From contig NZ_GL877878.1 in the NCBI RefSeq assembly GCF_000194155.1, positions 1,051,118 through 1,115,117 of the forward strand: a stretch of 64,000 bases of DNA. The letters run 5' to 3'. Below, piece by piece: positions 7,385 through 54,104 of this stretch. Both the position numbers and the translations under genes were made by a program. Each line of letters starts with the position of its first letter. The stretch's first letter is position 1. The stretch is from Saccharopolyspora spinosa NRRL 18395. GTDB lineage: Bacteria; Actinomycetota; Actinomycetes; Mycobacteriales; Pseudonocardiaceae. A model generated the notes under the pieces. The model saw only the letters and a list, made by a program, of their open reading frames with translations, was not told the origin of the DNA and ran no database searches.

Positions 7385-8362
7385 TTAGCTGCCCGACCCC
7401 CGTGTAAGGCGTCGACCAGGTGCGCGGCAGTCGTCGACGGACAACCGGGCGAGGCGCCGGGCCGTTGGCCAACGGACGTGGGTGACCCAACCGAGCTTCT
7501 CGAAGATCCGGATCAGCCACGCGGAGATGTCGATCTGGCCAGGTCGGACGCCGTGCCGAGCGCAGGTCGGGTCGGCGTGGTGCAGGTTGTGCCACGACTC
7601 GCCCATGCTCAGCAGGGCGAGCGGCCAGAAGTTGGCCGCTTTGTCGCGGCTGCGGAACGGGCGCTCCCCGAACATGTGGCAGATCGAGTTCACCGACCAG
7701 GTCACGTGGTGCAGGAAGGCGACGCGGACCAACCCGGCCCAGAAGAAGGACGTCGCGGCACCCCACCAGGTGCCGGTGATCAAGCCGCCGCACAACGCGG
7801 GCAGCGCGAACGTGGCCACGGTCAGCGGCCCGAACAACCGGTGCACCAGCCGGATGTCGGGGTCGGCCAGCAGATCGGGCGCGAACCGCTTCTGGTTCGT
7901 CAGATCCCGGTCGAAGATCCAGCCCATGTGCGCGTGCCAGAACCCCCGCGCCAACGCGACGGGAGACGTGCCGAACGCCCACGGCGAGTGCGGATCGCCC
8001 TCCCGGTCGGCGAACGCGTGGTGCCTGCGATGATCTGCGACCCAATGCAGGATCGGTCCCTGGACCGCCATGCTGCCCGCGACGGCGAGCGCGATGCGCA
8101 TCCAGCGCTTGGAGCGGAACGCGCCGTGCGTGAAGTAGCGGTGGTAGCCGACCGTCACGCCGAGGATGGTGAACACGTACCAGCCGGCGGCGAGCAGCGC
8201 ATCCCACCAGCGCAAGCCCCACCCCCACATCAGCGGCACAGCCGCGACCAAGGCAAGGAACGGCACGAGGATGAACGCGTAGACCGACAGGTGCGGGGCC
8301 AGCGGTCTGCGCCCGGCCAGCATCGGTTGGGGATTCGACTCGGACACGTCGCTGGCGACCAT
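7385..8362 (-). CDS. Acyl-CoA/fatty-acid desaturase (membrane diiron)
   Basis: A 325-residue membrane desaturase of the Delta9/stearoyl-CoA type. It would put a double bond into acyl chains using a diiron centre, O2 and an electron donor. The three histidine boxes are present: HRYFTH at 74-79, HRRHH at 111-115 and HNLHH at 258-262. Four hydrophobic helices lie around residues 25-70 and 175-215. ATG 8362 (MVASDVSESN) is chosen; GAGG lies 12 bases upstream, and the longer frame back to 8602 is not typical of the family. It likely tunes membrane fluidity. The 291 bp upstream hold no gene; I see no clear promoter there. Confidence 0.9.
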   Translation of the reverse strand: MVASDVSESNPQPMLAGRRPLAPHLSVYAFILVPFLALVAAVPLMWGWGLRWWDALLAAGWYVFTILGVTVGYHRYFTHGAFRSKRWMRIALAVAGSMAVQGPILHWVADHRRHHAFADREGDPHSPWAFGTSPVALARGFWHAHMGWIFDRDLTNQKRFAPDLLADPDIRLVHRLFGPLTVATFALPALCGGLITGTWWGAATSFFWAGLVRVAFLHHVTWSVNSICHMFGERPFRSRDKAANFWPLALLSMGESWHNLHHADPTCARHGVRPGQIDISAWLIRIFEKLGWVTHVRWPTARRLARLSVDDCRAPGRRLTRGSGS

Positions 8363-8653
8363 TGCAGCAGAAACCTCGAATCCGCCTAGTCGGAAGCTCC
8401 GCCACCACCGACCGGGAGGCAGCCGTTCACGCACCACACAACCGGCAAGGGGCACGAAGAGCAACGAACCGCCCGGCAAGCATTGGTGAACGCGAGTGAA
8501 GAGCTTGGTGTCGAGACACTGCCGCAGGTCGTGGGCGGCCCAGCGGCACGGTCCGGAGCTAGCCAGGTTCCCCTCATCAACGTGCGACAATGTACATCGC
8601 AATTTTGATGCAAGGGACCCTGTTGCGCTGGATGGCGAGACGCCGGCGCGGGA

Positions 8654-15898: not shown

Positions 15899-17110
15899 TC
15901 ACGGTTCGAGGTAGATGAACCCGCCGGAGTCGAGGGTGCGCCGCCGGAGGATCTCGTTGCCGTCGAGCATCCGCCGGAGGGCCGCGCCGTCGTCGGCGGG
16001 GGCGGTGCGCAGCAGGGCGAAGAGGAACGCGACCGGCTCGTCGGGCAGCCTGCACTGCGGCGTGCGGATGGCGTTGGTGTGGAACGGGTACAGCAGCACC
16101 AAACCACCGTCAGGGACGCCGAGATCGGCCGGATCGAGGGCCCGCATCGTCTCGGCGATCACCTCGTCGGCCGCCGAATCGGGCAGGATCGCGTTCAGCC
16201 ACGGGTGCGGCTGGTGCCACGCCCCGGTCTCGCGGAGCAGGGCCTCGTGCGGGGCCATCGCGTCGAGGAACTCGAAGTACTCCTGGTCCAGGCATTCCTC
16301 GGTGCGGTGCCGCAGGCCGTGGCCGGTGAACGAGGGCGGAGTCCAGGTGTAGTGGGTGGCGACGTCGAGCAGGTACTGCCAACCGGAGCCGTCGTCGGCC
16401 GGTTTCGCCAGGCCTTCCAGGTGGTCGAACTCGCGCCCGGCGATCAGCCGCCGCTGGTCGGTCAGGAAGTCCGGGAGGCTGTCGTAGCCGAGCAGCCGAC
16501 GGCTGACCCGCTCGGGAGCCGGCGTCAGTCGCAGCGTCGCGCGCAGGATGATGCCGTGCCGGCCGTGGCCGCCGCGGACGGCGTCGAACAGCGCCCGGTC
16601 CTCGGCGGCGGAGCAAGTTCGGATCGTGCCGTCTGGCGTGCGGACTTCGAGTTCGAGCACGTTGTCGGCCTGCAGGCCGTGCCGGTGGCTCGCGCCGCCG
16701 ATACCGCCCACGGAGAGCGTTCCGCCGACGGAGAGTTCGAGGTAGTCGGTCAGCACCGGCGGGGTGCGGCCCAGCGCGAGGGACGCCCGCAGCACCTCGC
16801 TCCAGCGGGCGCCCGCGTCGACGGTGATCCGGTCGTGGTCGACGTGGTGCACGGCGCGGAATCCGCTGGTGTCGATGACGATCCCGCCCTCGACCTGGGT
16901 CGCGCCCGTCGCCGAGTGCCCCTGACCGCGCACTGCGTACGGCAGCTCCCGGGCTTCGGCGTGTTCGACCGCCGCGACGATCTCGTCGACTGTGGACGGT
17001 CGCGCCACCGCGCGCGGGCGTAGGCGCACGAGGTGCCCCCAGTCGTCGGCGGCGCGGTCGCGGGATTCCTCGTCGGCGTGTAGGTGCGGGGTGGGCTCGG
17101 AGGTCGACAC
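15899..17110 (-). CDS. FAD-linked oxidase (cytokinin-dehydrogenase-like), short C-terminus
   Basis: A 403-residue flavoprotein of the FAD_binding_4 group. The PP-loop region reads RPSTVDEIVAAVEHAEA, then VRGQGHSATG and GGTLSVGGIGGASHRHGLQADNV, which wraps the FAD. The second half matches the substrate domain of cytokinin dehydrogenase-like oxidases (HPWLNAILP, then GLVLLYPFHTNAI). Relatives usually have about 50-70 more residues with a closing motif near LTPGQ; here the frame ends at FIYLEP. The gene may be clipped at its 3' end, where it meets the dctA promoter region. The substrate is unknown. A 22-bp palindrome lies 41 bp before the start. Confidence 0.75.
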   Translation of the reverse strand: MSTSEPTPHLHADEESRDRAADDWGHLVRLRPRAVARPSTVDEIVAAVEHAEARELPYAVRGQGHSATGATQVEGGIVIDTSGFRAVHHVDHDRITVDAGARWSEVLRASLALGRTPPVLTDYLELSVGGTLSVGGIGGASHRHGLQADNVLELEVRTPDGTIRTCSAAEDRALFDAVRGGHGRHGIILRATLRLTPAPERVSRRLLGYDSLPDFLTDQRRLIAGREFDHLEGLAKPADDGSGWQYLLDVATHYTWTPPSFTGHGLRHRTEECLDQEYFEFLDAMAPHEALLRETGAWHQPHPWLNAILPDSAADEVIAETMRALDPADLGVPDGGLVLLYPFHTNAIRTPQCRLPDEPVAFLFALLRTAPADDGAALRRMLDGNEILRRRTLDSGGFIYLEP

Positions 17111-17988: not shown

Positions 17989-18999
17989 CTAGCCGGTCTT
18001 GACGATCTGGAACTTCTCCACGAGTGCGGTGCGCAACCTCGGCGGGATAAGCGGGTGGTCGAAGCCCCGGTCGGCGAGATCGAACGGGCCGGCGACGTAG
18101 GCCTCGGCGAGCGTGGGTAGCACCGTGAATTCGTCGACGGCGACGGATTGCACGACCTCCGCCATTGTGGGGGAGTCCGGCAGGGCAGCCGCACCCCACT
18201 CCGCGATCCGCGGCAGTCTCCGCAGCCGGTTGACCGCGAGTCGCCGGAGGGACTCCCGGTACAGGGCGCTCGTGCGGCCGGCGTCGGCCAGAGCGATGAA
18301 CTCGCAAGACATGGCGACGGCCTCCGCGATGAGCAGGCCTTCTCCGAATTGCAGTTTGGCCGCTGCGGCCGGACCACTGTGCTCGGTGAGTTCAGCCAGG
18401 TGGTCCATGTGCGAGGCCATGTGCAGGTGCAGGCCCCAGCGCACGACGCGAGTTGCGGCGGTGCGTTGCTTAGCGACGACGACCAGGGTTGGTCGATCGT
18501 TGTCCACCAGCCATTCCCGCCATACGAGTTCCGCAGGAAGATCGGTATCGACGCAGTCGTGGCCGGTGCGTCCCAGCACACGTGTGCGGGCGTTGCGGTC
18601 CAGTTCGGCGGCGACTTCCGCTGCATCGGCCGGCTCGGTGTGCTCCTCGTCCCACCCTTCTGGCGTGCAGCTGTCGACAAAGCGTGCCAGCTGCGCCGCA
18701 CGGGCGCGGACCGCGGGGCGGGGCCACGGGGGTTCGGGATCTTGCTTGCGGTCCGCCACGTAGTCGACCGGCGCATCTGCGGGGAAGCCGCGTATCCGGC
18801 GGAGCCGGTCGGCGAACCGTGAGTACACGGGGGGCGAAGTCAGGACAAAATCGTCCACTGCGGACACCAGGAGTGGGTCTTTCGATGTCCGGGCCGCCAG
18901 CAGCAGTTCTGCCAGGTTGCGGGCGCGCCAGTCATCCGCCTCGGTGTCCGTGGCGGGAACGTTCGTGGCGAGCTGGATGAGCACGTCGGCGGGTGTCAT
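17989..18999 (-). CDS. Protein of unknown family in the biosynthetic cluster
   Basis: A 336-residue soluble protein that I do not recognise. ATG 18999 overlaps the stop of the upstream dioxygenase gene by 4 bases, so the two are translationally coupled. The sequence is largely helical. It contains HLHMASHMDHLAELTEH near residue 205 and, after it, EGLLIAEAVAMSCEFIALAD, a histidine/glutamate pattern that could bind metal. This would suit a heme-oxygenase-like diiron enzyme or a metallohydrolase, but neither is shown. The C-terminal part (LPTLAEAYVAGPFDLADRGF) gives no clue. Coupling to a dioxygenase suggests a catalytic or accessory role in the pathway. Confidence 0.75.
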   Translation of the reverse strand: MTPADVLIQLATNVPATDTEADDWRARNLAELLLAARTSKDPLLVSAVDDFVLTSPPVYSRFADRLRRIRGFPADAPVDYVADRKQDPEPPWPRPAVRARAAQLARFVDSCTPEGWDEEHTEPADAAEVAAELDRNARTRVLGRTGHDCVDTDLPAELVWREWLVDNDRPTLVVVAKQRTAATRVVRWGLHLHMASHMDHLAELTEHSGPAAAAKLQFGEGLLIAEAVAMSCEFIALADAGRTSALYRESLRRLAVNRLRRLPRIAEWGAAALPDSPTMAEVVQSVAVDEFTVLPTLAEAYVAGPFDLADRGFDHPLIPPRLRTALVEKFQIVKTG

Positions 19000-19664
19000 C
19001 GGATGACCAGCCTGACGCGCAAGATGAGCCGTCGGGGGTCGGAGAACCACGTCCGTCCGTGCAGGACGCGTTCGTTGTCGCAGATGAGCACGCTGTCGGT
19101 GCCAAGCACGAACTCACCTGCATCGGGGTGCGAGTCGAGGTGTTCGTCGAAGTCGGTCGCCACGGAGCGCAGCGAGGAATCCACGTCGAGGTTGTCGACC
19201 CGCCATCGGATCCTTCCGTCCTCCCTGGACACCGGGCGTGGTATGTCCGGTTCACCGCCGAACGTGGCTGGCGGAATCCATCGCCAGACGGGTTTTCGCA
19301 GCAGAGCGGACATTTCCGCCGGGAGGCCGGAAAGTGCTTTCCGGGCTTGCAGCACACGGCTTGCTCCGCCGTCTTCGGCGGGGCGCACGCAGAACAGTGC
19401 GAATCGCTGCTCGGGTTCCGCCCGGTAGGCGGCGTCGGTGTGGAAGCGTGCCTCGCCGGCGCGCACGCTGAACGTATCGGTTGACCCAGACTTCCGCGGT
19501 GTCACCGGCCAGATGGCCTGCCCTCCGTCGCGATCCGAGGCCGTTCCATAACGGCTCGCGATTCGTTCCACCACCCGGTAGTCCACGTCGGATCCATCGG
19601 TGAAACCGGCATTGTGGATCAATGCCCAACCTTGATTTGTTAGAGTTTCGAGCACGGAGGTCAT
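18996..19664 (-). CDS. Fe(II)/2-oxoglutarate dioxygenase (TauD type) 1
   Basis: A 222-residue TauD/TfdA-fold enzyme. The iron ligands are His75 and Asp77 in RFHTDAAY and a distal histidine near 202 in ERVLHGRTWF. An arginine about 10-14 residues later (RRLILRVRL) would hold 2-oxoglutarate. It is short compared with TauD (about 280) but all ligands are present. It would hydroxylate, desaturate or otherwise oxidise an unactivated carbon of the pathway intermediate. ATG 19664 follows GGAGG closely. It is divergent from the FMN oxidase gene; the 262 bp between them should hold both promoters. Confidence 0.85.
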   Translation of the reverse strand: MTSVLETLTNQGWALIHNAGFTDGSDVDYRVVERIASRYGTASDRDGGQAIWPVTPRKSGSTDTFSVRAGEARFHTDAAYRAEPEQRFALFCVRPAEDGGASRVLQARKALSGLPAEMSALLRKPVWRWIPPATFGGEPDIPRPVSREDGRIRWRVDNLDVDSSLRSVATDFDEHLDSHPDAGEFVLGTDSVLICDNERVLHGRTWFSDPRRLILRVRLVIR

Positions 19665-19926
19665 GGTTGCCTTTCCATGGTCCTTATGCCTGGGGCAATC
19701 GTGCCTGCCGGATAGTACGGCCCACAATGGTCCATGTGGGTGGCGCTTCGCTTGCGCCACAACCCGTTCGGCCGATGAGAGCGGTCTGGCAGGCCAGGTG
19801 CAAAACTTCGTACGCGACCAAGCGGCTGACGGGCCTGTGATGTAGATCTGACGATTGTTGCGCCAGATGAGTGATGTTGGGATCGGGTGGTGCGGTACTT
19901 GCTGGAAATTGGGCAGACTCGCCGTC

Positions 19927-21069
19927 ATGACGGGATTCGCTAATTATCAGCGCGAAATCGTCCAACTCGGTAAAGACGGAGAATCGCTTCCTTTTACGAC
20001 TGATCTGGCCGCCCTGGAGGGCGCTGTTCGAGCCAAGGTGCCAGCCGGACCGTACTGGTACGTGGCAGGCGGTGCCGGGACGGGTGCCACTGTGCGCGCC
20101 AACCGCGCGGCGTTCGAGCGTTGGCGGATCGTGCCAAGGATGCTCCGGAATGCCGACCGCAGAGACCTGAGCACCACGGTGCTCGGCATGCACCTGCCTG
20201 CCCCGGTGCTATTGGCACCCGTCGGTGTTCAATCCATACTGCACCAGGAGGCGGAACTCGCGAGCACACGTGCGGCCGCAGAACTGGGTCTTCCATCGGT
20301 GCTCTCCTCGTCATCGTCGCGGACTCTGGAAGAGGTCGCTTCGGCCGGTTGTGACGCGCCGAGGTGGATGCAGTTGTACTGGTCGAGCGACCGCGAGGTC
20401 TGCGCCAGCATCCTCGACCGCGGCAAGCGCGCTGGCTTCTCCGCCCTAGTGGTCACTGTCGACACCTGGACCCGGGGTTGGCGACCTCACGAAATGGACA
20501 GGGGCTACTATCCCGCTGCGCAGGGAATCGGCATGGCGATCCCGTTTTCCGATCCTGTCTTCCGAAAGCCGCCGGAAGAGGATCTCTCCGCGGCACTCGA
20601 GGTGTGGCAGCGCATGCCCACTGATGCCGGCAAGAGCTGGCAGCAGTTCTCCTTCCTGCGCGATCACTGGTCCGGCCCGATCGTGGTGAAAGGAATCCTG
20701 CATCCCGACGACGCGCGCCGTGCCGTGGCGAGCGGGGCCGATGGGATCGTCGTCTCCAACCACGGAGGACGCCAGGTCGACGGTGCCGTAGGTGCGTTGG
20801 AGATGCTCCCCGAGGTCGTCGACGCGGTCGGCGCGGAGGTAGACGTATTGTTCGATTCCGGAATCCGGACCGGTGCCGATGTCATCAAAGCCCTCGCTCT
20901 GGGAGCGAAAGCCGTGCTGGTCGGCCGACCCTACGTGTACGGGCTCGCTCAAGCGGGCGAGGCGGGCGTGCTCCACGTGCTGCGCAGCCTGCTCGCGGAC
21001 ATCGACATCACGCTCGGGCTTGTCGGATACCGCAGCCCGGCTGAGCTCGACCGAGATGCGCTGCGCTGA
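19927..21069 (+). CDS. FMN-dependent 2-hydroxy-acid oxidase
   Basis: A 380-residue enzyme of the glycolate oxidase/lactate monooxygenase/mandelate dehydrogenase family. It would oxidise a 2-hydroxy acid to the 2-oxo acid. FMN and substrate residues are in place: YVAGGAGTG at 45-53, PVLLAPVGVQ at 93-102, Lys255 in IVVKGI, and the catalytic SNHGGRQ with His279 and Arg282, then LFDSGIRTGADVIKALALGA. ATG 19927 starts MTGFANYQRE; a longer frame to 19855 lacks family similarity. A 2-oxo acid product fits well with the aminotransferase in the same cluster. It is followed 44 bp later by the aldolase gene. Confidence 0.9.
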   Translation: MTGFANYQREIVQLGKDGESLPFTTDLAALEGAVRAKVPAGPYWYVAGGAGTGATVRANRAAFERWRIVPRMLRNADRRDLSTTVLGMHLPAPVLLAPVGVQSILHQEAELASTRAAAELGLPSVLSSSSSRTLEEVASAGCDAPRWMQLYWSSDREVCASILDRGKRAGFSALVVTVDTWTRGWRPHEMDRGYYPAAQGIGMAIPFSDPVFRKPPEEDLSAALEVWQRMPTDAGKSWQQFSFLRDHWSGPIVVKGILHPDDARRAVASGADGIVVSNHGGRQVDGAVGALEMLPEVVDAVGAEVDVLFDSGIRTGADVIKALALGAKAVLVGRPYVYGLAQAGEAGVLHVLRSLLADIDITLGLVGYRSPAELDRDALR

Positions 21070-21113
21070 CATCACCCAGCTCCCCGGCCGTACACAGGGT
21101 TGGAGAAGACACC

Positions 21114-22109
21114 TTGAACTTTCCCGTCAGCCTCGTCGACTGCACGTTGCGTGAAGTCGAGTACGAAACCCACCTCACCCTCACCGAGTCCGTCCAAATC
21201 GCGGCGGAGCTCTCCGATGCCGGGGTTCACTACCTCGAGATTGCCGACGAGGACGCTCCGTCCCGGGCCGATCTGGAGATCGAGGACTATGTCGGCGCGA
21301 TTGCGCAGGCGGCCCCCCGATCCACCGTGGCCATCATGGTCTACCCGGGTGCGTCCCAGGAGACCATCGCGCGAGCGGTTGCGGCTGGCGCGGGCTGCGT
21401 ACGCCTGGCCGCGAACATCACCGAGGCCGCAGACATTCTTCCCTTGGCCGCCAGCGTGAAGGAACTCGGTGTCCAGCTGATCACCTTCAACGCCATGAAG
21501 ACCTATGCGGTGCTTCCCGCCGAAGCGGTCCGCATTGCCGAGGACGCCCGCGCTGCCGGGGTGGATGTCTTCTACACGGCTGATTCCGCTGGCTGCATGC
21601 TGCCTGGAGAGGTCACGGGCCTGCTCCGGTTGTTGCGGGACCGGGGGATCGCCACCGGGTTCCACGGCCACGACAACACCGCCCTCGCCGTGGCGAATTC
21701 CCTGGCGGCGCTGGACGCCGGTGCTGTGATGGTCGATGGCACGCTTCGCGGGGCCGGCCGTAGCGCTGGCAACGCGCAGCTTGAAGTACTCGTCAAAGCC
21801 GCACAACGCGGCGGATCCCTGTCTGGTGTAGATGGTGATCTGCTGGCCCGGAAGTCCGAGGATCTCGTCGCAGGCCGCCGGTTGCGGGATCGCGGGGTGT
21901 CCTATTTGGATATCGCGATCGGAGAAGGCCGCTTCCACACCGAGCGGCTGGCTTTGGCCCGCGAGGTCGCCGAGAGCTGCGGCGTGCCGCTGCCGGACTT
22001 GGTCCGGGAAGTCGGCCGCCGCGATCCGGTGCGGCCGTCGCGTGAGCTGATGGAAGCAGCCGCCGAGGACCTGTGCACCTCGCGGGACTTCGTTGGGGAG
22101 CGGGTCTGA
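21114..22109 (+). CDS. DRE-TIM metallolyase, aldolase-like (HMGL family)
   Basis: A 331-residue TIM-barrel enzyme of the HMG-CoA lyase/4-hydroxy-2-oxovalerate aldolase superfamily. The metal and catalytic motif is DCTLRE at residues 9-14 (usual form DGTLRD) and the metal-binding GFHGHDN places His184 and His186. The C-terminal dehydrogenase-contact domain of DmpG-type aldolases is not evident, and no acylating aldehyde dehydrogenase gene is next to it. It would make or break a C-C bond beside a 2-oxo acid. The TTG start at 21114 has a GGAG site upstream. It forms an operon with the FMN oxidase gene. Confidence 0.85.
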   Translation: MNFPVSLVDCTLREVEYETHLTLTESVQIAAELSDAGVHYLEIADEDAPSRADLEIEDYVGAIAQAAPRSTVAIMVYPGASQETIARAVAAGAGCVRLAANITEAADILPLAASVKELGVQLITFNAMKTYAVLPAEAVRIAEDARAAGVDVFYTADSAGCMLPGEVTGLLRLLRDRGIATGFHGHDNTALAVANSLAALDAGAVMVDGTLRGAGRSAGNAQLEVLVKAAQRGGSLSGVDGDLLARKSEDLVAGRRLRDRGVSYLDIAIGEGRFHTERLALAREVAESCGVPLPDLVREVGRRDPVRPSRELMEAAAEDLCTSRDFVGERV

Positions 22110-22116
22110 CTGACCT

Positions 22117-22181
22117 GTGCTGCGGGGTGGTTCGCCGCGGAGACAAGCCCGCTGAACCACCCCGTCCGGCCCGCGCAGCAC
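22117..22181. terminator. Two-part hairpin between convergent genes
   Basis: An outer arm (GTGCTGCG at 22117-22124 with CGCAGCAC at 22174-22181) and an inner perfect arm (22125-22133 with 22154-22162, GGGTGGTTC type) form a long stem. It lies between the convergent aldolase and dioxygenase-2 genes and would serve as a bidirectional terminator. Confidence 0.75.
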
Positions 22182-22212
22182 GCCGCCCGCGAGGGCCGGA
22201 TAACCGTGCACG

Positions 22213-22947
22213 CTAATGAGCTTCGGCGATGTGGATTCGGCGCAGGTGGCGATGTGGATCAGCGAAGGCGGTGCGGGCGTGCAGTAGGCGCCAGTTGTCC
22301 CAGATCACCATGTCGTTGCGCTGATAGCTGATCGCTAGGTGTTGTTCGTCGAAGAGCCGCTGCCAGGCCGACTGCAGCGCGGCGACGGGATCGGTGTCAT
22401 CGCGCACGATGTTGTTGACCGAGAATCTCACTACCGTGCTCCCGCGGTGCTCGTCCAGCAGCGGGTGCCGGAAGGCGATGCCGAGTTCGCCGTGCGGGTT
22501 CGTCCAGTCGTACTCGGTCTTCTCCAGGTGTTGGCGGTTCTGCTCGGACAACCCCGCCAGCCACGGCCGGGTGTCCGCCAGAGTTGTTTCCCCGCCGTCC
22601 CCAGCCGGGGGATGCACGCACCAAAGGGCCAGGTAACGCGGCGGAAGCCCTAGCAGGTCATAGCCCTCGGTGTGCGGCGCGAACGCTTTGGTGCTGCCTG
22701 GGTAGTAGACGCCGTCTGCCGTGGGCGCGGGTCTGACCTCGGCCACGAGAGCACCGTCGTGGTGCGGCATGAGCGGACCCAGTCGACGACCGAACGCCAC
22801 GGGGTCGAAGTCGTCCGGCAGGCCTGTCAGGTGGACGTAGCCATGTTCGTCCATGAGGCTTTGGAAAGTCTTCTCGAAGAGTACGTCGGGAACGGGTTTT
22901 CCGTTGGCATCAGTCCGGTGGAGGACGCTGAGTGGTGAACGACCCAT
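22213..22947 (-). CDS. Fe(II)/2-oxoglutarate dioxygenase 2, HxE type
   Basis: A 244-residue TauD/clavaminate-synthase-fold enzyme. The first iron motif is HTE (His92, Glu94 in APHTEGYD), not the common HxD; clavaminate synthase also uses HxE. The distal histidine is in RLLHARTAF, followed by HLRRIHI, which supplies the 2-oxoglutarate arginine. WCVHPPAGDGGETTLAD is typical of the family. I start at ATG 22947, with GGGAG 5 bases upstream, rather than ATG 22995. It probably performs a second oxidation in the pathway. A terminator hairpin separates it from the GcvT-like gene upstream, so it may have its own promoter or rely on read-through. Confidence 0.85.
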   Translation of the reverse strand: MGRSPLSVLHRTDANGKPVPDVLFEKTFQSLMDEHGYVHLTGLPDDFDPVAFGRRLGPLMPHHDGALVAEVRPAPTADGVYYPGSTKAFAPHTEGYDLLGLPPRYLALWCVHPPAGDGGETTLADTRPWLAGLSEQNRQHLEKTEYDWTNPHGELGIAFRHPLLDEHRGSTVVRFSVNNIVRDDTDPVAALQSAWQRLFDEQHLAISYQRNDMVIWDNWRLLHARTAFADPHRHLRRIHIAEAH

Positions 22948-23009
22948 GTCCCACTCCCTTCGGTCGATGTGCACTCTCGGGTGCGTCGTGCTCAAGGCGG
23001 GCGGTAAAA

Positions 23010-23038
23010 GGGGCCGGGGTTGGTGCTGCCCCGGCCCC
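23010..23038 (-). terminator. Intrinsic-type hairpin after the GcvT-like gene
   Basis: A perfect 10-bp GC stem (23010-23019 with 23029-23038) with a 9-nt loop is followed on the minus strand by TTTTACCGCC. Stem plus short T run fit a Rho-independent terminator placed 27 bp after the GcvT-like stop codon. Confidence 0.75.
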
Positions 23039-23064
23039 GCTCCGTCGGTGCGTACGGCCGTTGC

Positions 23065-24312
23065 CTAGGGCGCGGTGGGGAGGGCTGGGAACGGAATAGT
23101 GCTGACCTGCCAGCGTGAGCCAGCGGCGTGCACGACCGCACCCGGTTGGCAGTCTGGTGCCAGGTGGGCGAACGCCAGCACACGGCCTTCCCGCGGAGAA
23201 GGTGCGGCTGACGTGACGTATCCCAGGAAGCCGCCGCTGTCGTCGAGCACCTCGTCACCCACCAGCGGGCAGCCGGCCTTCGGGTCGGCAGCGTGCAAAC
23301 CGGCCAGCCACAGTCGTTGCGAACCGCGGCTTTTCAGCAGCCCGTCGCGACCGATGTAGTCGCGGTTGTCGTGGTCGTCGGACAGCATCCAACCCGCTCC
23401 GATCTCGAACAGGGTGGTGCCGATGTGCACGTCTACCGGGAAGAGGCCGAAGGTGATGTCACGGCACTCCATTCGGTAGATGGTGAGCAGTTCCCAGCCG
23501 CACGGGGTGATCTCGGGCCGTTCGGTGACGAGCTGCCGCCACACCGCAGCCAGCACCTCTGCGGACGCCCAGACCTCGTAACCGATGACGCTCCTGAGCA
23601 CTCGGGCCTGGCCACCGACGAGCGTTCGCACCTGGCAGGACTGGAAGTTGCGCAGATCGGCGATCACGCCTCGGTCCGCATCCTCGACGAGGCTCTGCAC
23701 CGCTTGCAAGCGCTTGGGCCCCTTGATGTTGAAGCTGAAGACCTCGCTGGGCAGGATGCTGACCTCGGTGAAGAACTCGGCAGTGCGGCGCAGCCAGCCC
23801 GGCTCCTTTCCGCCGCCGCAGGACAGCAGGAACTCCTCCGGACCGGTGCGGACGACGACAGCTTCCTCGTCGACCGTTCCGGCGGGTGTGGTGAACAGCA
23901 CGAATCTCGCGGAACCGAGTGGCAGATCTGACACCTTGCGTGGGGAAAGTGCGTCCAACAACGCCCCGGCGTCGCTGCCCGAAACCTCGAGGTAGCACAT
24001 CGCGGACGCGATGAAAGCGCCTGCGCCGTGGGTCACCGCGCGGTACTGCTGGTCCAGATCGACCTCGCGCCAGCCCCAGGCGCCGATCACGTTGTCGCCG
24101 AGGACGGTCCACTTCGTGACCCCGCCGAGCAGTGCGTCCGTCGCGTGCAGGATCCCTCCAGGATCGACGCGGCGCAGTTTAAGGACGTTCTGCATGACTG
24201 GCAGTTCCGCTGGTTCAATATTGCTCCATACCATGCCCGATTGGGCTAGCGGGTTCCGAATTTCCGGATTCCATTCACGAGGTGTAAAGCCTACGTCCCG
24301 TAGCGTCTGCAC
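23065..24312 (-). CDS. GcvT-like aminomethyltransferase/demethylase-fold protein
   Basis: A 415-residue member of the folate-binding GcvT superfamily, which includes glycine-cleavage T protein, LigM O-demethylase and DMSP demethylase. It has a distinct N-terminal extension (about residues 1-75, with WGWREVDLDQQYRAV), then the barrel domain: YLEVSGSDAGALLDALSPRKVSDLPLG, FSFNIKGPKRLQAV, and the YxVW-like GYEVWASAEVLAAVWRQLV. The C-terminal domain follows (DDSGGFLGYVTSAAPSPREG). No gcvP or gcvH is nearby, so it is not part of glycine cleavage. In this cluster it could remove or move a one-carbon group via tetrahydrofolate, or use the fold for an unrelated reaction. Confidence 0.8.
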   Translation of the reverse strand: MQTLRDVGFTPREWNPEIRNPLAQSGMVWSNIEPAELPVMQNVLKLRRVDPGGILHATDALLGGVTKWTVLGDNVIGAWGWREVDLDQQYRAVTHGAGAFIASAMCYLEVSGSDAGALLDALSPRKVSDLPLGSARFVLFTTPAGTVDEEAVVVRTGPEEFLLSCGGGKEPGWLRRTAEFFTEVSILPSEVFSFNIKGPKRLQAVQSLVEDADRGVIADLRNFQSCQVRTLVGGQARVLRSVIGYEVWASAEVLAAVWRQLVTERPEITPCGWELLTIYRMECRDITFGLFPVDVHIGTTLFEIGAGWMLSDDHDNRDYIGRDGLLKSRGSQRLWLAGLHAADPKAGCPLVGDEVLDDSGGFLGYVTSAAPSPREGRVLAFAHLAPDCQPGAVVHAAGSRWQVSTIPFPALPTAP

Positions 24313-24606
24313 GGGGCGATGCTAGCCGGATTTTGATTCCACGCATTGCTACAGGCAGGTGAATCACATCATCCGCCGATCGGACGCGTTGACGAGTGGG
24401 GCTCAACGGTGGGACATTCTTCCAGGTTTGCTCCCGGGATGGTTGCTCAAACATCCATTATGGACAACTTCATCTGCCATTTTTCGAAGTAACCCGCAGG
24501 TGAGGATTCCCTGACAAGGTCCTGCGGACCCGGAACGGTAGTTGGTTGCGGCTCGGGGGAACAACGTCGGCCCCAACGGTTCTTGCGCGAGTCAAGGAAG
24601 GCACCC

Positions 24607-25548
24607 ATGAATGAAACCCACGCACCGCTGGTCTGGTGGCACGGTGAGGTCGTGCCCTGGGACCAGGCCCGTATTCCGGTCACTGCGCTGCGCGGGTTGA
24701 CCGTGTTCGACGGCCTCCGTGCGTACTGGCGGCCGGAGGAAAAGCGGTTCGCCGTGGTGCAGGTGGACGGCCACCTGAATCGCCTCCGTTCGGCCGCCGA
24801 GCTGCTGCACGTTCCGGAGAACGGTTTGATTGACCAGTTGGACAAGGGAATGGGCGATCTCCTGGCGGCGACCAGCTTCCGCGAGGACGTCTACCTACGG
24901 CTGACCGTCTACATCGACTCCGGCCGGTCCAATGTGTACCCTGACGCGCTGTCGCCGGGGCAGTCGCTGGATGAGTTCGCCCCGATGGATTCGTTCATCT
25001 CGTTGCACCAGATCGGTCCCCGCTTCGATGAGCCGATCAGCTGCGTGGTCAGCTCCTGGCAGCGCACCCAGGACACGTCCTTCCCGGTGCTGGTGAAGAC
25101 TGGTGCGTCCTACGCGGCGCTGAGGCTGGCCCGGGTCGAGGCGAAGAAGGCGGGAGCCGACCAGGCGATCCTGCTCAACAACCGCGGCATGGTGGCGGAA
25201 ACCGCCGAAGCGGTGATCTTCATGGTCCGCCACGGCCGGCTGTACACGCCTCCGCTGTCCGACGGAGTCCTGGACAGCCTGACCCGGGAGACCGTGATCC
25301 AGCTGGCCCGCAGAGAACTCGCTCTTACGGTCGAGGAGTGTTCGATCACCCGCTCTGAGCTGTACACCGCCGACGAGGTCTTCATCTGTGGTACATGGGA
25401 GGAGATCCGGGTCGTCGGCTCGATCGACGGCCACCGGCCCCGCAACCCGGAAGCCCCGATCTCCCACGCGTTGCGCCAGGCCTACCTCGACATGTGCACC
25501 GGGCGGCGCCCTCCGATCGAACCCGACTTCGTGCGATTGCTGCCTTGA
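24607..25548 (+). CDS. PLP class IV aminotransferase (branched-chain type)
   Basis: A 313-residue fold-type IV aminotransferase like IlvE. The PLP lysine is Lys164 in FPVLVKTGASYAALRLA. MVAETAEAVIF carries the conserved glutamate, and LSDGVLDSLTRETVIQLA binds the cofactor phosphate. VTALRGLTVFDGLRAYW at the N-terminus is family-typical (DG.FEG/GLR). It would move an amino group between glutamate and a 2-oxo acid, giving the amino-acid product or starting material. ATG 24607 is chosen; the frame runs back to 24583. It leads the three-gene plus-strand operon and is divergent from the GcvT-like gene, with 294 bp of presumed promoter DNA between. Confidence 0.9.
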   Translation: MNETHAPLVWWHGEVVPWDQARIPVTALRGLTVFDGLRAYWRPEEKRFAVVQVDGHLNRLRSAAELLHVPENGLIDQLDKGMGDLLAATSFREDVYLRLTVYIDSGRSNVYPDALSPGQSLDEFAPMDSFISLHQIGPRFDEPISCVVSSWQRTQDTSFPVLVKTGASYAALRLARVEAKKAGADQAILLNNRGMVAETAEAVIFMVRHGRLYTPPLSDGVLDSLTRETVIQLARRELALTVEECSITRSELYTADEVFICGTWEEIRVVGSIDGHRPRNPEAPISHALRQAYLDMCTGRRPPIEPDFVRLLP

Positions 25549-25577
25549 CGGAACCAGCATTGCAGAGGTGAGAACAG

Positions 25578-26789
25578 GTGCGCGACCAAAAACTGCGTCC
25601 CGGTGCATTAACCGCGACGCCGGGCGGAGCACCCGACCCGCGGGAGACCATGCGGGTGCTACCTGGATTCCTCCAACCCACCCTCACGTGGCTCACCGGC
25701 AAACCGCTAGGAGACCAGCGGCCGTGGCAGCTCAAGCCGCTGCACCACCTGTGGGCCAGCGTGCTGCCCATTGTCGCGGGAATCGCGCTGGGAGCTGCGG
25801 TGGTGGGCGAGGGGTGGTGGATGCTGTTGCTGCCGGCCTCCTGGCTGCTGACCACGCACGGCATCCGGAAGCTGCGGGTGATGATCGTCCACCAGTGTTC
25901 GCACGCGAACTTCCTGCGGCACAAGCAGATCGACAGCGCGATCGGCAGCGCGATCGCGTTGCTGCTGGTGACGCAGGAGTACGGCGAGTACAAGAGTGAG
26001 CACGTCAGCGACCACCACTCGAGCAACCACATGACGTTGAAGGACCCCACCGTCCAGTTCCTGATGCTGGTCCTGGGCATGCGGGTAGGCATGACCCGCA
26101 GGCAACTGTGGCGCAGAATGCTCGCGGGTGTCTTCTCGCCGCGTCTGCAGGCGAAGGCGACTTGCTCGCGGGTCGCCTCGCACTTCCGTGGCACCGCTGC
26201 CTGGTACCGGGCGCTGTTCCTGGCGCTGGTCGGCGGGCAGCTCATGGTGGTCATCGCACTCGGGATCTGGGTCGAGTACCTCGTCGTGTGGGTGTTCCCC
26301 CTGGTGTTCCTGTTCAACGCGGCAGCCACGATCCGCCTTTCGTCGCGACACATCTTCCCGGCCCGCGGACCGGTGCCTAAGGGGCGCGCAACGCTGGCCG
26401 GGTATACCCACGGCGTCTTCTTCGGCGAAGCCGCGCCCGGCCCCGAGGTGCCGGGTGTCCGGCGAGTCCTGAGCTGGTCGCGGTGGTGGCTGCGGATGCT
26501 GTTCGTGCACCTGCCGGCGCGCCTGTTCGTCTTCGTCGGCGACGGGCCGTGCCATGACTACCACCACCGGTTCCCACGCTCGCGGGACTGGGCGAACTAC
26601 ATCTTCGCCCGGCACCGCGACATCGCCGCCGGGCATCCAGGCTGGCCGCCCTACACCGAAGTGTGGGGACTGGTGGCCGCCATCAACGCGGTGTTCACCA
26701 CGCTGAGCGCGGCAGACCTGCGGTTGTACGACGTCTCCCAGGTCACGTCGGTTAGCCGGCAGGAACTCCTGTCGGCCTTCGAAGAGTAG
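25578..26789 (+). CDS. Fatty-acid-desaturase-like membrane diiron enzyme
   Basis: A 403-residue integral membrane protein. The histidine clusters are HQCSH at 105-109, HVSDHH plus His151 around 142-151, and HDYHH near 323 (GPCHDYHHRF). Hydrophobic segments lie around 60-95, 120-132, 213-240 and 240-260. This is the desaturase/hydroxylase superfamily, but the sequence differs from the lipid desaturase at 7385-8362 in box spacing and length. In biosynthetic clusters such enzymes can desaturate or hydroxylate amino-acid or acyl substrates. GTG 25578 starts 29 bp after the aminotransferase stop, so the genes are co-transcribed. Confidence 0.8.
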   Translation: MRDQKLRPGALTATPGGAPDPRETMRVLPGFLQPTLTWLTGKPLGDQRPWQLKPLHHLWASVLPIVAGIALGAAVVGEGWWMLLLPASWLLTTHGIRKLRVMIVHQCSHANFLRHKQIDSAIGSAIALLLVTQEYGEYKSEHVSDHHSSNHMTLKDPTVQFLMLVLGMRVGMTRRQLWRRMLAGVFSPRLQAKATCSRVASHFRGTAAWYRALFLALVGGQLMVVIALGIWVEYLVVWVFPLVFLFNAAATIRLSSRHIFPARGPVPKGRATLAGYTHGVFFGEAAPGPEVPGVRRVLSWSRWWLRMLFVHLPARLFVFVGDGPCHDYHHRFPRSRDWANYIFARHRDIAAGHPGWPPYTEVWGLVAAINAVFTTLSAADLRLYDVSQVTSVSRQELLSAFEE

Positions 26790-26819
26790 TCCCGCAACGC
26801 GGAGGGCTTGCGACGCGCC

Positions 26820-27875
26820 ATGCAGAACACGAAGCACTCATCCTTCTCCGCTGTCGAAATCCTGCCCGGCACCACCATGCAGGAGTACCTCGACGAGCTC
26901 CGGATCCGCCACCCGAGGTTGTACGAGCGCCTTGACCTGGCACGGCTGGACCCAACGCAGCTCGCCCGGATATACGAGGCCCTGGACTGCTTCGCCTCGC
27001 CGTTCGACACCAAGGAACACGGCGGTCGCGGTGACGCCTATCGCAGCACCCAGCTCAAACATCCCCTGGTACGTGCACGGGGGATCAGCAACCTGTGCCA
27101 GCTGGCCATACCGGGGGACAGCAGCCCCGCCCGCAGCTTCCTGCTCGACGCGCTCGGTGGCAACGGAACCATGACGCGAGCGATGCGGCTGCTCCAGGCA
27201 GCCACAGGTCCCGCCATCTTCACCGGAGACGTGGCCGCCCCGATGATCGCCGACGCCTTGGCGCAAGGGCTCCCAGCCGTGCGGCAATCCACGCAGCGGT
27301 GGCTGTTCCGGGATGCGGCACTCGATGGCGTCATCTTCGCCTACGGCACCCACCACATTCCCGTCGACGAGCGTCCCCAGGCGATGGCGGAAGCCCATCG
27401 GGTGCTCCGGCCAGGTGGGCAGATCGTCGTGCACGACTTCGAGGAGGGCAGCACCACGGCTCGCTGGTACAGCGAAGCCCTGGACCGCTACACCTACACC
27501 GGGCACAAGCACGAGCACTTTCTTCGCGAGGAAATGCATGAGTTGCTCTCCGGCGCGGGCTTCCACGACGTGCGGGTCCGGTACCTGTACGATCCGTGCG
27601 TCGTAGATGCTGACTCCCCCGCAGCGGCCCGGCGTGGCGTGATCAACTACATGTACGACCTATTCGCGCTGGCGAAGCTCGTTCCCCCGGACGCGTTGGA
27701 CGACGAGGACTCCTGGATGATCGTCGATGAGGTCGTCCGTCGCTACGCCACCTTCGGTCCAGAGGAACGAGCCAGGCTTGGAGCGCAGGTGGCGGAGCTG
27801 ACCGTCCGCCCGGCCGGCCGAGGTTTCCGGGCCGAACTCCCCAGGGTGGCGCTCGTCGCGACCGCAACCCGTTGA
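26820..27875 (+). CDS. SAM-dependent methyltransferase
   Basis: A 351-residue class I methyltransferase. A unique N-terminal region (about 1-100) precedes motif I, FLLDALGGNGTMTRAMRLL, an altered form of the usual D-x-G-x-G. Then come an acidic motif II (FTGDV), the motif IV region LDGVIFAYGTHHI, and the post-motif segment MAEAHRVLRPGGQIVVHDFE, which is strong evidence for the fold. ATG 26820 is chosen; an in-frame TTG at 26808 lies too near the GGAGGG site. The substrate is unknown; O- or N-methylation of the pathway product is likely. It is the third gene of the plus-strand operon. Confidence 0.85.
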   Translation: MQNTKHSSFSAVEILPGTTMQEYLDELRIRHPRLYERLDLARLDPTQLARIYEALDCFASPFDTKEHGGRGDAYRSTQLKHPLVRARGISNLCQLAIPGDSSPARSFLLDALGGNGTMTRAMRLLQAATGPAIFTGDVAAPMIADALAQGLPAVRQSTQRWLFRDAALDGVIFAYGTHHIPVDERPQAMAEAHRVLRPGGQIVVHDFEEGSTTARWYSEALDRYTYTGHKHEHFLREEMHELLSGAGFHDVRVRYLYDPCVVDADSPAAARRGVINYMYDLFALAKLVPPDALDDEDSWMIVDEVVRRYATFGPEERARLGAQVAELTVRPAGRGFRAELPRVALVATATR

Positions 27876-28020
27876 GCCCTGTCCGAAAGCGAGTCTCGGC
27901 AGCTCCTGAGGATCCGTGAGTGTTTTGGGTCGCTCACATGTGTCCACAATAGATGGACCGGGAAGGTGGCTGCGCGCGGCGCGGGAAGATGCTGACGTAA
28001 GCCTCGTTCGCGGAGTTGGC

Positions 28021-28827
28021 TCACGAGTGTTCGTAGTGGGCCGTTGGTGGCAGGGCGAGGGCCCGGGGGGAGCCCAAGGCTCGGGAGAGGCCGCGGGCCG
28101 CTGCTCGGACCGCGGGGACCAGGGCAATCGGGTCGCTGGTCTCGGCCGGCACCACAATGGATAGTGCCGCCACCACCTCGTCGGTGTCGCCGTGGACCGG
28201 GGCCGCCACCGAGAGGGTGGACAGTTCGATCTGGCGGTCGCTGATGGCGAAGCCGTTCTTCCTGATGCCGGCGAGGATTCCGCGCAGCTGCCTCGGGTTG
28301 GCGATCGTCTTGTCCGTGAAGCGCTTCATCGGCTCGTCCAAGACCGCCTCCTGCAGCTCGCGGTCGGCGTGCGCCAGCAGGACCAGGCCGACTCCGGTGG
28401 CGTGCAGCGGCAACCGGCCGCCCGGCCGGGACACCACCGGTACCGCGTCGCGGCCCGAAATGCGTTCGAGGTAGACCACCTCGTGGCCGTCGAGGACGCC
28501 GAGCTGCACGTTCTGGCGGGTGGCCTCGTAGAGGTCACCGAGGAACGGCATGGCGACCTGACGCAGGAACGTGCCACGCGGGGTCAGTGCCGCGAGCTCG
28601 TAGATCCGGAGCCCTATGCGGTAGCGGCCGTCGGCGTCGCGCTCCAGGGCGCCCCACCCGGCGAGCTCGCCGACCAGCCGGTGCGTGGTCGTCAGCGACA
28701 GGCCGCTGTGACGGCTGATCGCGGACAGCGTCAGCGATGGTCGATCCGGTGCGAAGGTCTCCAGGATCCGGAACAACCGGGACGCCACGGTCGGCGCACC
28801 GGCCCCACCCGCGCCGCGCTCGCCCAT
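28021..28827 (-). CDS. IclR family transcriptional regulator
   Basis: A 268-residue IclR regulator: N-terminal winged helix (VASRLFRILETF, LSAISRHSGLSLTTTHRLVGELAGWGAL) and a C-terminal effector domain (YLERISGRDAVPVVSRPGGRLPLHATGVG, with the family glycine-arginine segment, and GFAISDRQIELSTLSVAAPV). ATG 28827 begins MGERG after GGGGGTGT. It is convergent with the methyltransferase gene across 145 bp. It is the only regulator at the edge of the biosynthetic set, so it might control it in response to a small acid, but no site pair supports that yet. Confidence 0.88.
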   Translation of the reverse strand: MGERGAGGAGAPTVASRLFRILETFAPDRPSLTLSAISRHSGLSLTTTHRLVGELAGWGALERDADGRYRIGLRIYELAALTPRGTFLRQVAMPFLGDLYEATRQNVQLGVLDGHEVVYLERISGRDAVPVVSRPGGRLPLHATGVGLVLLAHADRELQEAVLDEPMKRFTDKTIANPRQLRGILAGIRKNGFAISDRQIELSTLSVAAPVHGDTDEVVAALSIVVPAETSDPIALVPAVRAAARGLSRALGSPRALALPPTAHYEHS

Positions 28828-29184
28828 GACACCCCCGCACTCCGACCAGCCCATTGTGACCCGGCCTGGTAAGTGAGGCGAAGTCAACCGTTGCCCGCGC
28901 GCGACGCGTGCTCGGCCCGTTACCGCACGCCAGCGATGCGTCGCGCGTCCCGCTCCGGGTTCACTCGCTGGCGATGAGCACCTGGCTGATCTGGATGGGG
29001 GCGGACCTCGACGAGGGTTTCCAGCTCGATCCGGAAACGCCTTTGATCAACGTGAAAGTCATGTCGATCACGGTAGTTAAGGCTTCGTCCGCATCGGACC
29101 GGTTCCACCCGGACAGCCCAGCTCCCGCGCCGAGAGTCAGCTCACATCGGCCCGTCTTGACGCCCGCTGCGGTGGATCTCACCG
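28828..29184. other. Interval with no intact gene
   Basis: This 357-bp stretch holds no complete gene. On the minus strand, 28961-29110 reads like the C-terminal end of a lost protein (SGWNRSDADEALTTVIDMTF and onward to a stop), with no start or family match that I can name. Together with the two fragments that follow it suggests past deletion next to the arabinosyltransferase gene. Confidence 0.4.
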
Positions 29185-53002: not shown

Positions 53003-53635
53003 TCAGCCGAGCCCGCTCTCGGCGAGGGCCTCGTCGAGCCCGTCGAGCAGGACCACGCCGAGGGTGTTCGCAACCGAGCCGGTCGCCAGCTCGCTGCGGA
53101 GCCGGTAGGCGAGCAATCGCACCCGGCGCGGGTCCGGCCGGTCCTGCCGCGCGGCCTCGCGCAGCCGCCGTGCGATCAATTCGATCTCGGCGGTGTCGCC
53201 GTAGCGGGCGTGCACCGTCGGTAGCGTGAGGAGCACGACCTTGGCCACCCGGGTCAGCCCGGTGAAATCGGGGCTGGGAGCGGGTGCCGGCGAAGGCTGG
53301 GCGGGCACCACCGGTGCCGGGGGCTCGTCGAGCAGCGCGACCGACTGCGCCCGCGCCCACGAACCGATGTCCCCGCCGTGCCGGCCGGCGCAGATCAGCC
53401 CGGAGCCGGTCAGGCCGGCGCGGGCGGGTGCGCCCTGCTGTCCGGTTCCGCTGGTGGCGATCAGCTCCTGGTCCCGCAGCGTCCGCACGACTTCGGCGAG
53501 TTCGGCCCATGACGGCTGCAGCGTCGCGGCCTCGGCCGCCGGGCTGTCGAAGAAACCCGCGACCTCGGGCCGGAATCGGTCGTCCTCGTAGAGGTAGCGG
53601 AGGAAGGCGCGAGCGAGCGACTCAAGCCGTGACAC
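53003..53635 (-). CDS. Hypothetical protein with helical N-terminal domain
   Basis: A 210-residue protein of no family I can name. GTG 53635 has GGAGG 6 bases upstream, so the gene is real. The N-terminal part (LARAFLRYLYEDDRFRPEVAGFFD, then WAELAEVVRTLRDQELI) resembles a winged-helix or bundle domain. A central Pro/Ala linker follows (about residues 105-130), then a C-terminal helical part (ANTLGVVLLDGLDEAL). The segment LTGSGLICAGRHGGDIGSW contains conserved-looking glycines. It may be a two-domain regulatory or stress protein. Confidence 0.6.
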   Translation of the reverse strand: MSRLESLARAFLRYLYEDDRFRPEVAGFFDSPAAEAATLQPSWAELAEVVRTLRDQELIATSGTGQQGAPARAGLTGSGLICAGRHGGDIGSWARAQSVALLDEPPAPVVPAQPSPAPAPSPDFTGLTRVAKVVLLTLPTVHARYGDTAEIELIARRLREAARQDRPDPRRVRLLAYRLRSELATGSVANTLGVVLLDGLDEALAESGLG

Positions 53636-54104
53636 GGTTGGCCTCCAGGTTGCTCGTCCAGGGTGCAGGGCGAGGGGGAGGGCGGACCCGGGTCCTGCCG
53701 AAGACCGCAGAACGCACCGGCGCGCAGCCGGTTTCGGAATCATGGTTGCCGCTGTCCCCAGTTTCAGCGGATCCGCCATGCGACCGCCGGGTTGCGGTCG
53801 GTCACATCGCAGCAGCGTAAGCGGACCCTGGCCGTGATCGCAGGGGTCTTTTGTCACCCACAAGTTGGGGATTGCGATGCCAGGGTGTAACTGTCCATTG
53901 TGTTCAATGTCGGCACAATCCGCGCCACTGCGCAGAAAGGGGCTGGAGTGACGCGGGGGACCGCCGACCGCGACCACATCCAACGCCGCGACCGACGGCC
54001 GGTCGCGCGTTCGGAACCCCCTGCATTCCACGCGCGCCGCAGGCGCTCCAGACGGCGTGGTCGAGACCCGCGTGGATGATCGTCATGCCGGGAGTTCCAG
54101 AAAT
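53636..54104. other. Interval with no gene seen
   Basis: About 470 bp between the hypothetical protein and the TetR gene. I see no protein with codon use or composition like its neighbours and no clear hairpin. The stretch around 53890-53920 (TGTAACTGTCCATTGTGTTC) is AT-richer and may hold a promoter. Confidence 0.4.

What the first reader, a model, noticed from the sequence alone, without database searches (positions are those of the whole stretch)
17989..28827. Candidate undescribed amino-acid-type biosynthetic cluster
Nine enzyme genes and an IclR regulator, with two couplings and clean terminators, combine 2-hydroxy-acid oxidation, 2-oxo-acid aldol chemistry, transamination, two Fe/2OG oxidations, a membrane diiron oxidation, methylation and a GcvT fold. 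There is no NRPS, PKS, ATP-grasp or exporter. A logical route is hydroxy acid to oxo acid to C-C bond change to amino acid, then oxidation and methylation, giving a free non-protein amino acid. I know no described cluster with this set.
Basis: partly seen in the sequence, partly recalled or inferred. Interest (0 to 1): 0.88.

Follow-up and report, generated by a model that had tools for sequence, protein, structure and literature searches.

The report
Rare orphan small-molecule gene cluster

Summary
The genes are real. Eight of nine fall in known enzyme families (two TauD-type Fe/2OG, FMN 2-hydroxy-acid oxidase, DmpG-like HMGL protein, GcvT-like, BCAT-like, GntB-like membrane diiron, SAM methyltransferase). 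The ninth, hyp1, has no Pfam or NCBIfam match but an invariant HxxxHxDH...E motif. One same-genus genome (G007) holds all nine in the same order (91-96% protein identity where measured; GcvT frameshifted there). A third (G015) keeps four, two with deletions through their motifs. The HMGL gene is in 3 of 22 genus and 3 of 390 family genomes searched. dN/dS against G007 is about 0.22 (seven genes); seven of nine genes have unusually low third-position GC. So this is a rare unit under selection, probably acquired, not a chance neighbourhood. The IclR gene is not part of it: in two relatives lacking the cluster it sits beside pobA. Most likely the unit makes a small non-protein amino acid: 2-oxo acid, aldol step, transamination, then desaturation or hydroxylation and methylation. 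The chemistry is inferred; no product is shown. The genome is very probably Saccharopolyspora spinosa NRRL 18395. No described cluster with this set turned up in eight literature searches; MIBiG could not be searched.

The parts
17989..18999 (-). hyp1, 336 aa, no known family; H210/H214/D216/H217, E243, E250 (numbering of the 353-aa ORF) invariant in four aligned sequences, a candidate metal site
   Evidence: no Pfam/NCBIfam match; alignment (this protein, G007, Arthrobacter plasmid, G663); Arthrobacter homologue 32%
18996..19664 (-). OGa, TauD-type Fe/2OG enzyme, HTD...H; ATGA overlap with hyp1
   Evidence: PF02668 E 2.4e-16; motif and overlap from sequence
19927..21069 (+). FMN-dependent 2-hydroxy-acid oxidase, closest among solved structures to lactate oxidases and lactate 2-monooxygenase
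   Evidence: PF01070 E 3.3e-121; PDB 7f22, 6dvh
21114..22109 (+). HMGL-like protein, DmpG-like over its length, TTG start; HxH metal motif kept, Tyr at the position of DmpG His21
   Evidence: TIGR03217 151 bits; alignment to 8ih7 and 4jn6
22112..22205 (.). hairpin between convergent HMGL and OGb genes, likely terminator
   Evidence: -54.4 kcal/mol, z -4.25
22213..22995 (-). OGb, TauD-type Fe/2OG enzyme with HTE...H
   Evidence: PF02668 E 1e-26
22998..23062 (-). hairpin with UUUU after GcvT, before OGb
   Evidence: z -2.06
23065..24312 (-). GcvT-like protein; Pfam match starts at residue 88; Asp position kept (GTVDEE), canonical TGYTGExG(F/Y)E segment not kept (RSVIGYE)
   Evidence: PF01571 E 8.8e-26; alignment to 1woo, 1yx2, 3a8i
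24607..25548 (+). BCAT-like class IV aminotransferase
   Evidence: PF01063 E 2e-38; PRK06606 212.5 bits, cutoff 279
25578..26789 (+). membrane diiron oxygenase/desaturase, GntB-like, eight invariant His
   Evidence: NF041365 GntB E 2.6e-10; alignment of eight sequences
26820..27875 (+). SAM-dependent methyltransferase, class I
   Evidence: PF08241 E 2.2e-09

Best explanation
A nine-gene, probably horizontally acquired biosynthetic unit for a small, free, non-protein amino acid. Proposed route (inferred): the FMN oxidase makes a 2-oxo acid from a 2-hydroxy acid; the DmpG-like protein joins a 2-oxo acid to an aldehyde, giving a 4-hydroxy-2-oxo acid; the BCAT-like enzyme turns it into a gamma-hydroxy-alpha-amino acid; the GntB-like membrane diiron enzyme, encoded between aminotransferase and methyltransferase, hydroxylates or desaturates it; the methyltransferase caps an O or N. 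The two Fe/2OG enzymes oxidise further, one of them coupled to hyp1. The GcvT-like protein gives or removes a one-carbon unit with folate. Shown: gene families, grouping, selection, sporadic distribution. Inferred: direction, order, substrates, product.
For: Families. Nine-gene block kept in order in G007. In G015 only HMGL, FMN, OGa and hyp1 are seen, OGa and hyp1 with deletions that remove their metal motifs, and desaturase and GcvT give no match in that genome. dN/dS 0.22 pooled over seven genes. Seven of nine genes have GC3 0.735-0.818, below 13 Pfam-supported genes around them (0.859-0.935); BCAT (0.857) and desaturase (0.876) are not clearly low. HMGL gene in 3 of 22 genus and 3 of 390 family genomes. 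Desaturase relatives lie beside MutE-type glutamate mutase genes in two genomes, beside a haem-oxygenase-like oxidase and a 2OG enzyme, with an NRPS-type gene about 11 kb off, in Agrobacterium vitis, and in a Massilia NRPS cluster. This protein and the six relatives scanned all score best with GntB.
Against: No product, expression or activity data. No exporter or resistance gene seen in the unit. The HMGL protein has Tyr where DmpG has its catalytic His and an REVEY segment closer to the REGEQ of CoA-dependent condensing enzymes (roles and motif recalled; alignment), so the aldol step is uncertain. The GcvT-like protein lacks a canonical motif. The G007 copy of GcvT carries a frameshift, which may be an assembly error or decay. 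OGb has the weakest constraint (0.44). Two of six desaturase relatives have no informative amino-acid neighbours (Klebsiella; Paraburkholderia record unannotated).
Confidence: 0.55

Rival explanations
1. A catabolic cassette that breaks down an N- or O-methylated amino or hydroxy acid: Fe/2OG hydroxylation, GcvT-type demethylation to folate, retro-aldol cleavage by the HMGL protein, transamination and 2-hydroxy-acid oxidation.
For: Both TauD-type proteins weakly match gamma-butyrobetaine dioxygenase; GcvT relatives include demethylases and sarcosine oxidase; DmpG-type aldolases are known from degradation of aromatics (recalled).
Against: A SAM methyltransferase and a GntB-like oxygenase are not typical of degradation (knowledge); no uptake gene lies among the nine; several relatives of the desaturase sit in biosynthetic clusters; the adjacent catabolic-type IclR goes with pobA in relatives.
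Confidence: 0.2
2. Two separate units side by side: hyp1/OGa/FMN/HMGL, and OGb/GcvT/BCAT/desaturase/MT, with separate functions.
For: G015 keeps only the first four in the stretch read; a hyp1 relative sits with a TauD enzyme without the rest on an Arthrobacter plasmid; a hairpin divides the two sets.
Against: In G015 the kept half is itself decaying; both halves are together in G007 with similar divergence.
Confidence: 0.15
3. A fragment of a larger pathway whose scaffold enzymes (for example an NRPS) lie elsewhere in the genome, the nine genes supplying a building block.
For: Relatives of the desaturase occur in or near NRPS clusters.
Against: No scaffold gene within the block or its G007 copy; the rest of the genome was not searched for a partner.
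Confidence: 0.1

Closest known systems
Nikkomycin NikB aldolase plus aminotransferase module (recalled; the listing named no paper on it)
   Same: DmpG-type aldolase with an aminotransferase, giving a gamma-hydroxy amino acid
   Different: No NikA-type acylating aldehyde dehydrogenase here; Tyr in place of the DmpG His; no nucleoside genes. No sequence comparison with NikB was made.
Rhizobitoxine desaturase RtxC (PMC6304460, passages seen)
   Same: A desaturase acting in the last step to an enol-ether amino acid
   Different: RtxC itself was not compared with this protein; no RtxA-type gene among the nine
Guanitoxin GntB (NF041365; PMC10367076, passages seen)
   Same: Best-scoring NCBIfam model for the desaturase (E 2.6e-10); membrane enzyme of an amino-acid pathway
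   Different: 40 bits against a cutoff of 380, so not an orthologue
GcvT / TMAO demethylase / DMSP demethylase superfamily
   Same: GcvT folate-binding domain and the Asp position
   Different: Far below the cutoffs; closest protein found is a lone one on Salmonella IncFIB plasmids (39%), which shares GTVD(E/D)EAV and TPCGW
PobR-type IclR regulators
   Same: The flanking gene 28021-28887
   Different: Not part of the unit

Membership tests
DmpG 4-hydroxy-2-oxovalerate aldolase | Reaches the NCBIfam cutoff (TIGR03217) | tested here: not met
   151 bits against 286
DmpG 4-hydroxy-2-oxovalerate aldolase | Catalytic His21 (numbering and role recalled) | tested here: not met
   Tyr17 at that position; HxH kept (H184, H186); Asp18 position is Glu14
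Membrane diiron oxygenases of the GntB kind | Eight-His motif | tested here: met
   H105, H109, H142, H146, H258, H326, H329, H330 invariant in eight sequences
GntB L-arginine hydroxylase | NCBIfam equivalog cutoff | tested here: not met
   40.2 bits against 380
RtxC dihydrorhizobitoxine desaturase | Sequence similarity to RtxC | not tested
   RtxC sequence was not at hand
FMN 2-hydroxy-acid oxidases | Pfam FMN_dh and active-site Lys, His, Arg segments | tested here: met
   E 3.3e-121; VVKGI and SNHGGR in the sequence (roles recalled)
Canonical GcvT | NCBIfam cutoff and TGYTGExG(F/Y)E segment | tested here: not met
   TIGR00528 71.7 bits against 235.85; segment not kept
Branched-chain aminotransferase (PRK06606) | NCBIfam cutoff | tested here: not met
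   212.5 bits against 279
PobR regulator (flanking IclR) | Synteny with pobA in relatives | tested here: met
   IclR next to a 4-hydroxybenzoate 3-monooxygenase in both loci read, G001 and G009; own pobA 45.7 kb away
PobR regulator (flanking IclR) | NCBIfam TIGR02431 cutoff | tested here: not met
   142.9 bits against 284.75, best model all the same
Any MIBiG cluster | Close match to a described cluster | not testable with these tools
   MIBiG not available; literature searches only

The most novel reading that the evidence does not exclude
The cluster makes an enol-ether (alkoxyvinylglycine-type) amino acid by a new route: aldol formation of a 4-hydroxy-2-oxo acid, transamination, O-methylation and RtxC-like beta,gamma-desaturation, matching the BCAT-desaturase-MT gene order. 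It would be an actinobacterial counterpart of rhizobitoxine built without RtxA, with hyp1/OGa as a new two-protein metal oxidation module.
Probability: 0.12. Interest if true: 0.8.

Novelty: new variant of a known kind. Interest (0 to 1): 0.5.

Why it matters
If confirmed, it is an uncharacterised amino-acid pathway in what is very probably the industrial spinosad producer and in one close relative, with no core enzyme of the kind that cluster finders look for (inference). It also brings a protein with no named family (hyp1) that occurs beside TauD-type Fe/2OG enzymes in two distant settings, and a GcvT-like protein of unknown chemistry. Each is directly testable by deletion and metabolomics.

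Tried and rejected
Rejected: IclR as cluster regulator. Rejected: chance neighbourhood. Rejected: lipid desaturation; no Pfam FA_desaturase match, GntB model best, and the true fatty-acid desaturase at 7385-8602 shows no significant similarity (E 0.28). Anti-phage role for hyp1, GcvT and desaturase: no PADLOC match.

Led nowhere: two scans of genome contigs (35 and 43 pattern stretches, none confirmed as relatives; the patterns are short exact peptides, so this is weak evidence of absence). Structure of hyp1 (mean pLDDT 42), not used for any fold search. Search for the Salmonella GcvT gene in E. coli genomes (no match). HMGL search in 297 genomes of another family (none; the tool warns that an empty answer without a genome known to match shows nothing). 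Literature on NikB and on GcvT-like biosynthetic enzymes. Repeat search: only weak, scattered repeats, nothing marking the ends of the block.

Limits and corrections: FMN and hyp1 were left out of the dN/dS count, so it covers seven of nine genes, GcvT only over its last 341 codons and HMGL over 324. My first GC3 comparison used 15 hand-picked genes, nine of them from a list already filtered at GC3 above 0.82. A recount without the filter gave, outside the cluster, 36 ORFs of 250 aa or more above 0.82 (0.823-0.957) and 46 at or below it; most of these 46 lie largely over the first set, but one (53003-54031, 0.813) overlaps none and may be a real gene, and five more overlap by less than half. 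I therefore compare with 13 Pfam-supported genes only. BCAT, MT and OGb were not searched for in G015 beyond the 20 kb fetched. Of the eight other genomes with an IclR orthologue of at least 80% identity, three of the neighbourhoods fetched besides G009 were available (G001, G004, G012) and only G001 and G009 were read.
Full report
What is there. On the minus strand: hyp1 (17989-18999) and OGa (18996-19664), overlapping as ATGA. On the plus strand: FMN 2-hydroxy-acid oxidase (19927-21069) and HMGL protein (21114-22109). On the minus strand: OGb (22213-22995) and GcvT-like (23065-24312). On the plus strand: BCAT-like (24607-25548), membrane diiron (25578-26789) and methyltransferase (26820-27875). 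The start sites are my choice from the sequence. Two divergent gaps, 19665-19926 and 24313-24606, are the likely promoter regions (inference; the sigma-70 scan found 1 site against 0.9 expected, and not there). Hairpins lie between HMGL and OGb and after GcvT, none after MT.

Which genome. G000 has 8,581,920 bases in 22 contigs. A passage of PMC8292330 gives the S. spinosa NRRL 18395 shotgun sequence as NZ_GL877878-NZ_GL877899, which counts 22, and I recall the same genome length for that strain. The genome is therefore very probably that strain. The relative G007 may be S. pogona: a passage of PMC11162802 puts the two species in one group with the largest genomes of the genus, up to 9.6 Mb. 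These names are inference; the handles bear none.

Is it a unit? The HMGL gene occurs in 3 of 22 genomes of the genus, 3 of 390 of the family (the same three, own genome included), 1 of 266 sampled from the class (own only) and 0 of 297 of another family (no positive control). GcvT was found in 1 of 296 class genomes (own), hyp1 in 2 of 394 (own, and one match of 37% over residues 166-298, E 1.2e-7), the desaturase in 3 of 296 (own and two at 48%). In G007 all nine genes follow in the same order. Protein identity there is 95% for HMGL, 93% for hyp1, 96% for the desaturase and, for GcvT, 91% over residues 1-54 and 96% over 52-415, in two different frames. In G015 the HMGL protein (84%), the FMN oxidase, a shortened OGa and a shortened hyp1 remain. 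The hyp1 deletion removes the HxxxHxDH stretch and OGa lacks its HxD stretch. Desaturase (E up to 0.01) and GcvT (E up to 1e-20) give no match in G015.

Selection and origin. Between the window and G007, seven genes give pooled dS 0.091, dN 0.020, ratio 0.22 (range 0.15-0.44); the flanking dctA gene gives dS 0.098, ratio 0.07. So the block and its left flank have diverged for similar time. GC3 is 0.735-0.818 in seven of the nine genes, 0.857 in BCAT and 0.876 in the desaturase. Thirteen Pfam-supported genes outside the unit have 0.859-0.935. Searches drew on a filtered list; the unfiltered recount is (see Tried and rejected). This fits acquisition followed by shared descent, but moderately: two genes are not clearly low. 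In G007 the left flank (RtcB, dctA, GtrA and a remnant of the FAD oxidase) is the same and the right flank differs.

The IclR gene. Orthologues of at least 80% identity occur in eight other genus genomes, none with the HMGL gene. In G001 and G009 the order is an arabinosyltransferase-like gene, IclR, pobA, with one extra open frame between the first two in G001 (pobA confirmed as 4-hydroxybenzoate 3-monooxygenase; the window's own arabinosyltransferase by Pfam). In the window's genome pobA lies 45.7 kb from the IclR gene. IclR scores best with the PcaR/PcaU/PobR model, below its cutoff. The simplest reading is that a stretch of about 46 kb holding the cluster came to lie between pobR and pobA (inference).

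Enzymes. The desaturase has an eight-His pattern, invariant in eight aligned sequences. It and the six relatives scanned have GntB as best NCBIfam model, at 33-58 bits against a cutoff of 380. Relatives lie beside MutE-type glutamate mutase genes in G571 and G522 (the G522 protein is at 351 bits against 390), beside a haem-oxygenase-like oxidase and a 2OG enzyme in A. vitis and in a Massilia NRPS cluster. The Klebsiella relative has an AzlCD-type amino-acid exporter pair beside it and no biosynthetic genes among those listed; the Paraburkholderia record has no annotation. The HMGL protein matches DmpG along its length but has Tyr where DmpG has its catalytic His (role recalled), so aldol and CoA-dependent condensation are both possible. 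The GcvT-like protein keeps the Asp position and does not keep the TGYTGE segment. It shares GTVD(E/D)EAV and TPCGW with a 39% relative standing alone on Salmonella plasmids. hyp1 has relatives in G663 and on the conjugative Arthrobacter plasmid pZXY23, where it sits with a TauD enzyme (28% to OGa), a FolE2-type GTP cyclohydrolase and a class III aminotransferase.

How it most likely works. The families fit a route from 2-hydroxy acid to 2-oxo acid, C-C bond formation with an aldehyde, transamination, then oxidation, desaturation and methylation of the amino acid. Precedents are NikB plus aminotransferase in nikkomycin (recalled, not found) and RtxC in rhizobitoxine (passages of PMC6304460). 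None of the steps is shown. A catabolic reading is the main rival.

Known or new. The eight literature searches that ran listed no cluster with this set; I saw listings and, for five papers, passages. They cover only open-licence papers, and MIBiG and supplementary tables could not be searched. A passage of PMC12713090 reports 37 antiSMASH regions in S. spinosa NHF132; whether this locus is one of them I could not see. I file it as a new variant of a known kind: an orphan amino-acid-type gene cluster with an unusual enzyme set.

Noticed in passing
L021 9732-14419 (Arthrobacter pZXY23): Small operon TauD - FolE2-type GTP cyclohydrolase - hyp1 homologue - class III aminotransferase on a conjugative plasmid, function unknown.
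   Followed up: partly
L016 and L022 11812-13029 (Salmonella IncFIB plasmids): A lone GcvT-like gene, 39% identical to the cluster's, next to a ParD/RelE pair; no match in the E. coli collection by blastn.
   Followed up: partly
L014 and L015: In two genomes of another family a relative of the desaturase sits next to a MutE-type glutamate mutase gene and a quinone-oxidoreductase-like gene; L015 also has LysX/ArgE-like, exporter-like and decarboxylase-like genes by eye. Possibly another undescribed amino-acid cluster.
   Followed up: partly
window 7385-8602: A conventional fatty-acid desaturase (PF00487) beside an MFS transporter, not related to the cluster's desaturase.
   Followed up: yes
L006 41-7663: A 2540-residue open frame with repeated segments of unknown kind, near the decayed half-cluster in G015.
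   Followed up: no
window 15899-17110: FAD oxidase with a cytokinin-dehydrogenase-like domain, intact here but reduced to a remnant in G007.
   Followed up: partly
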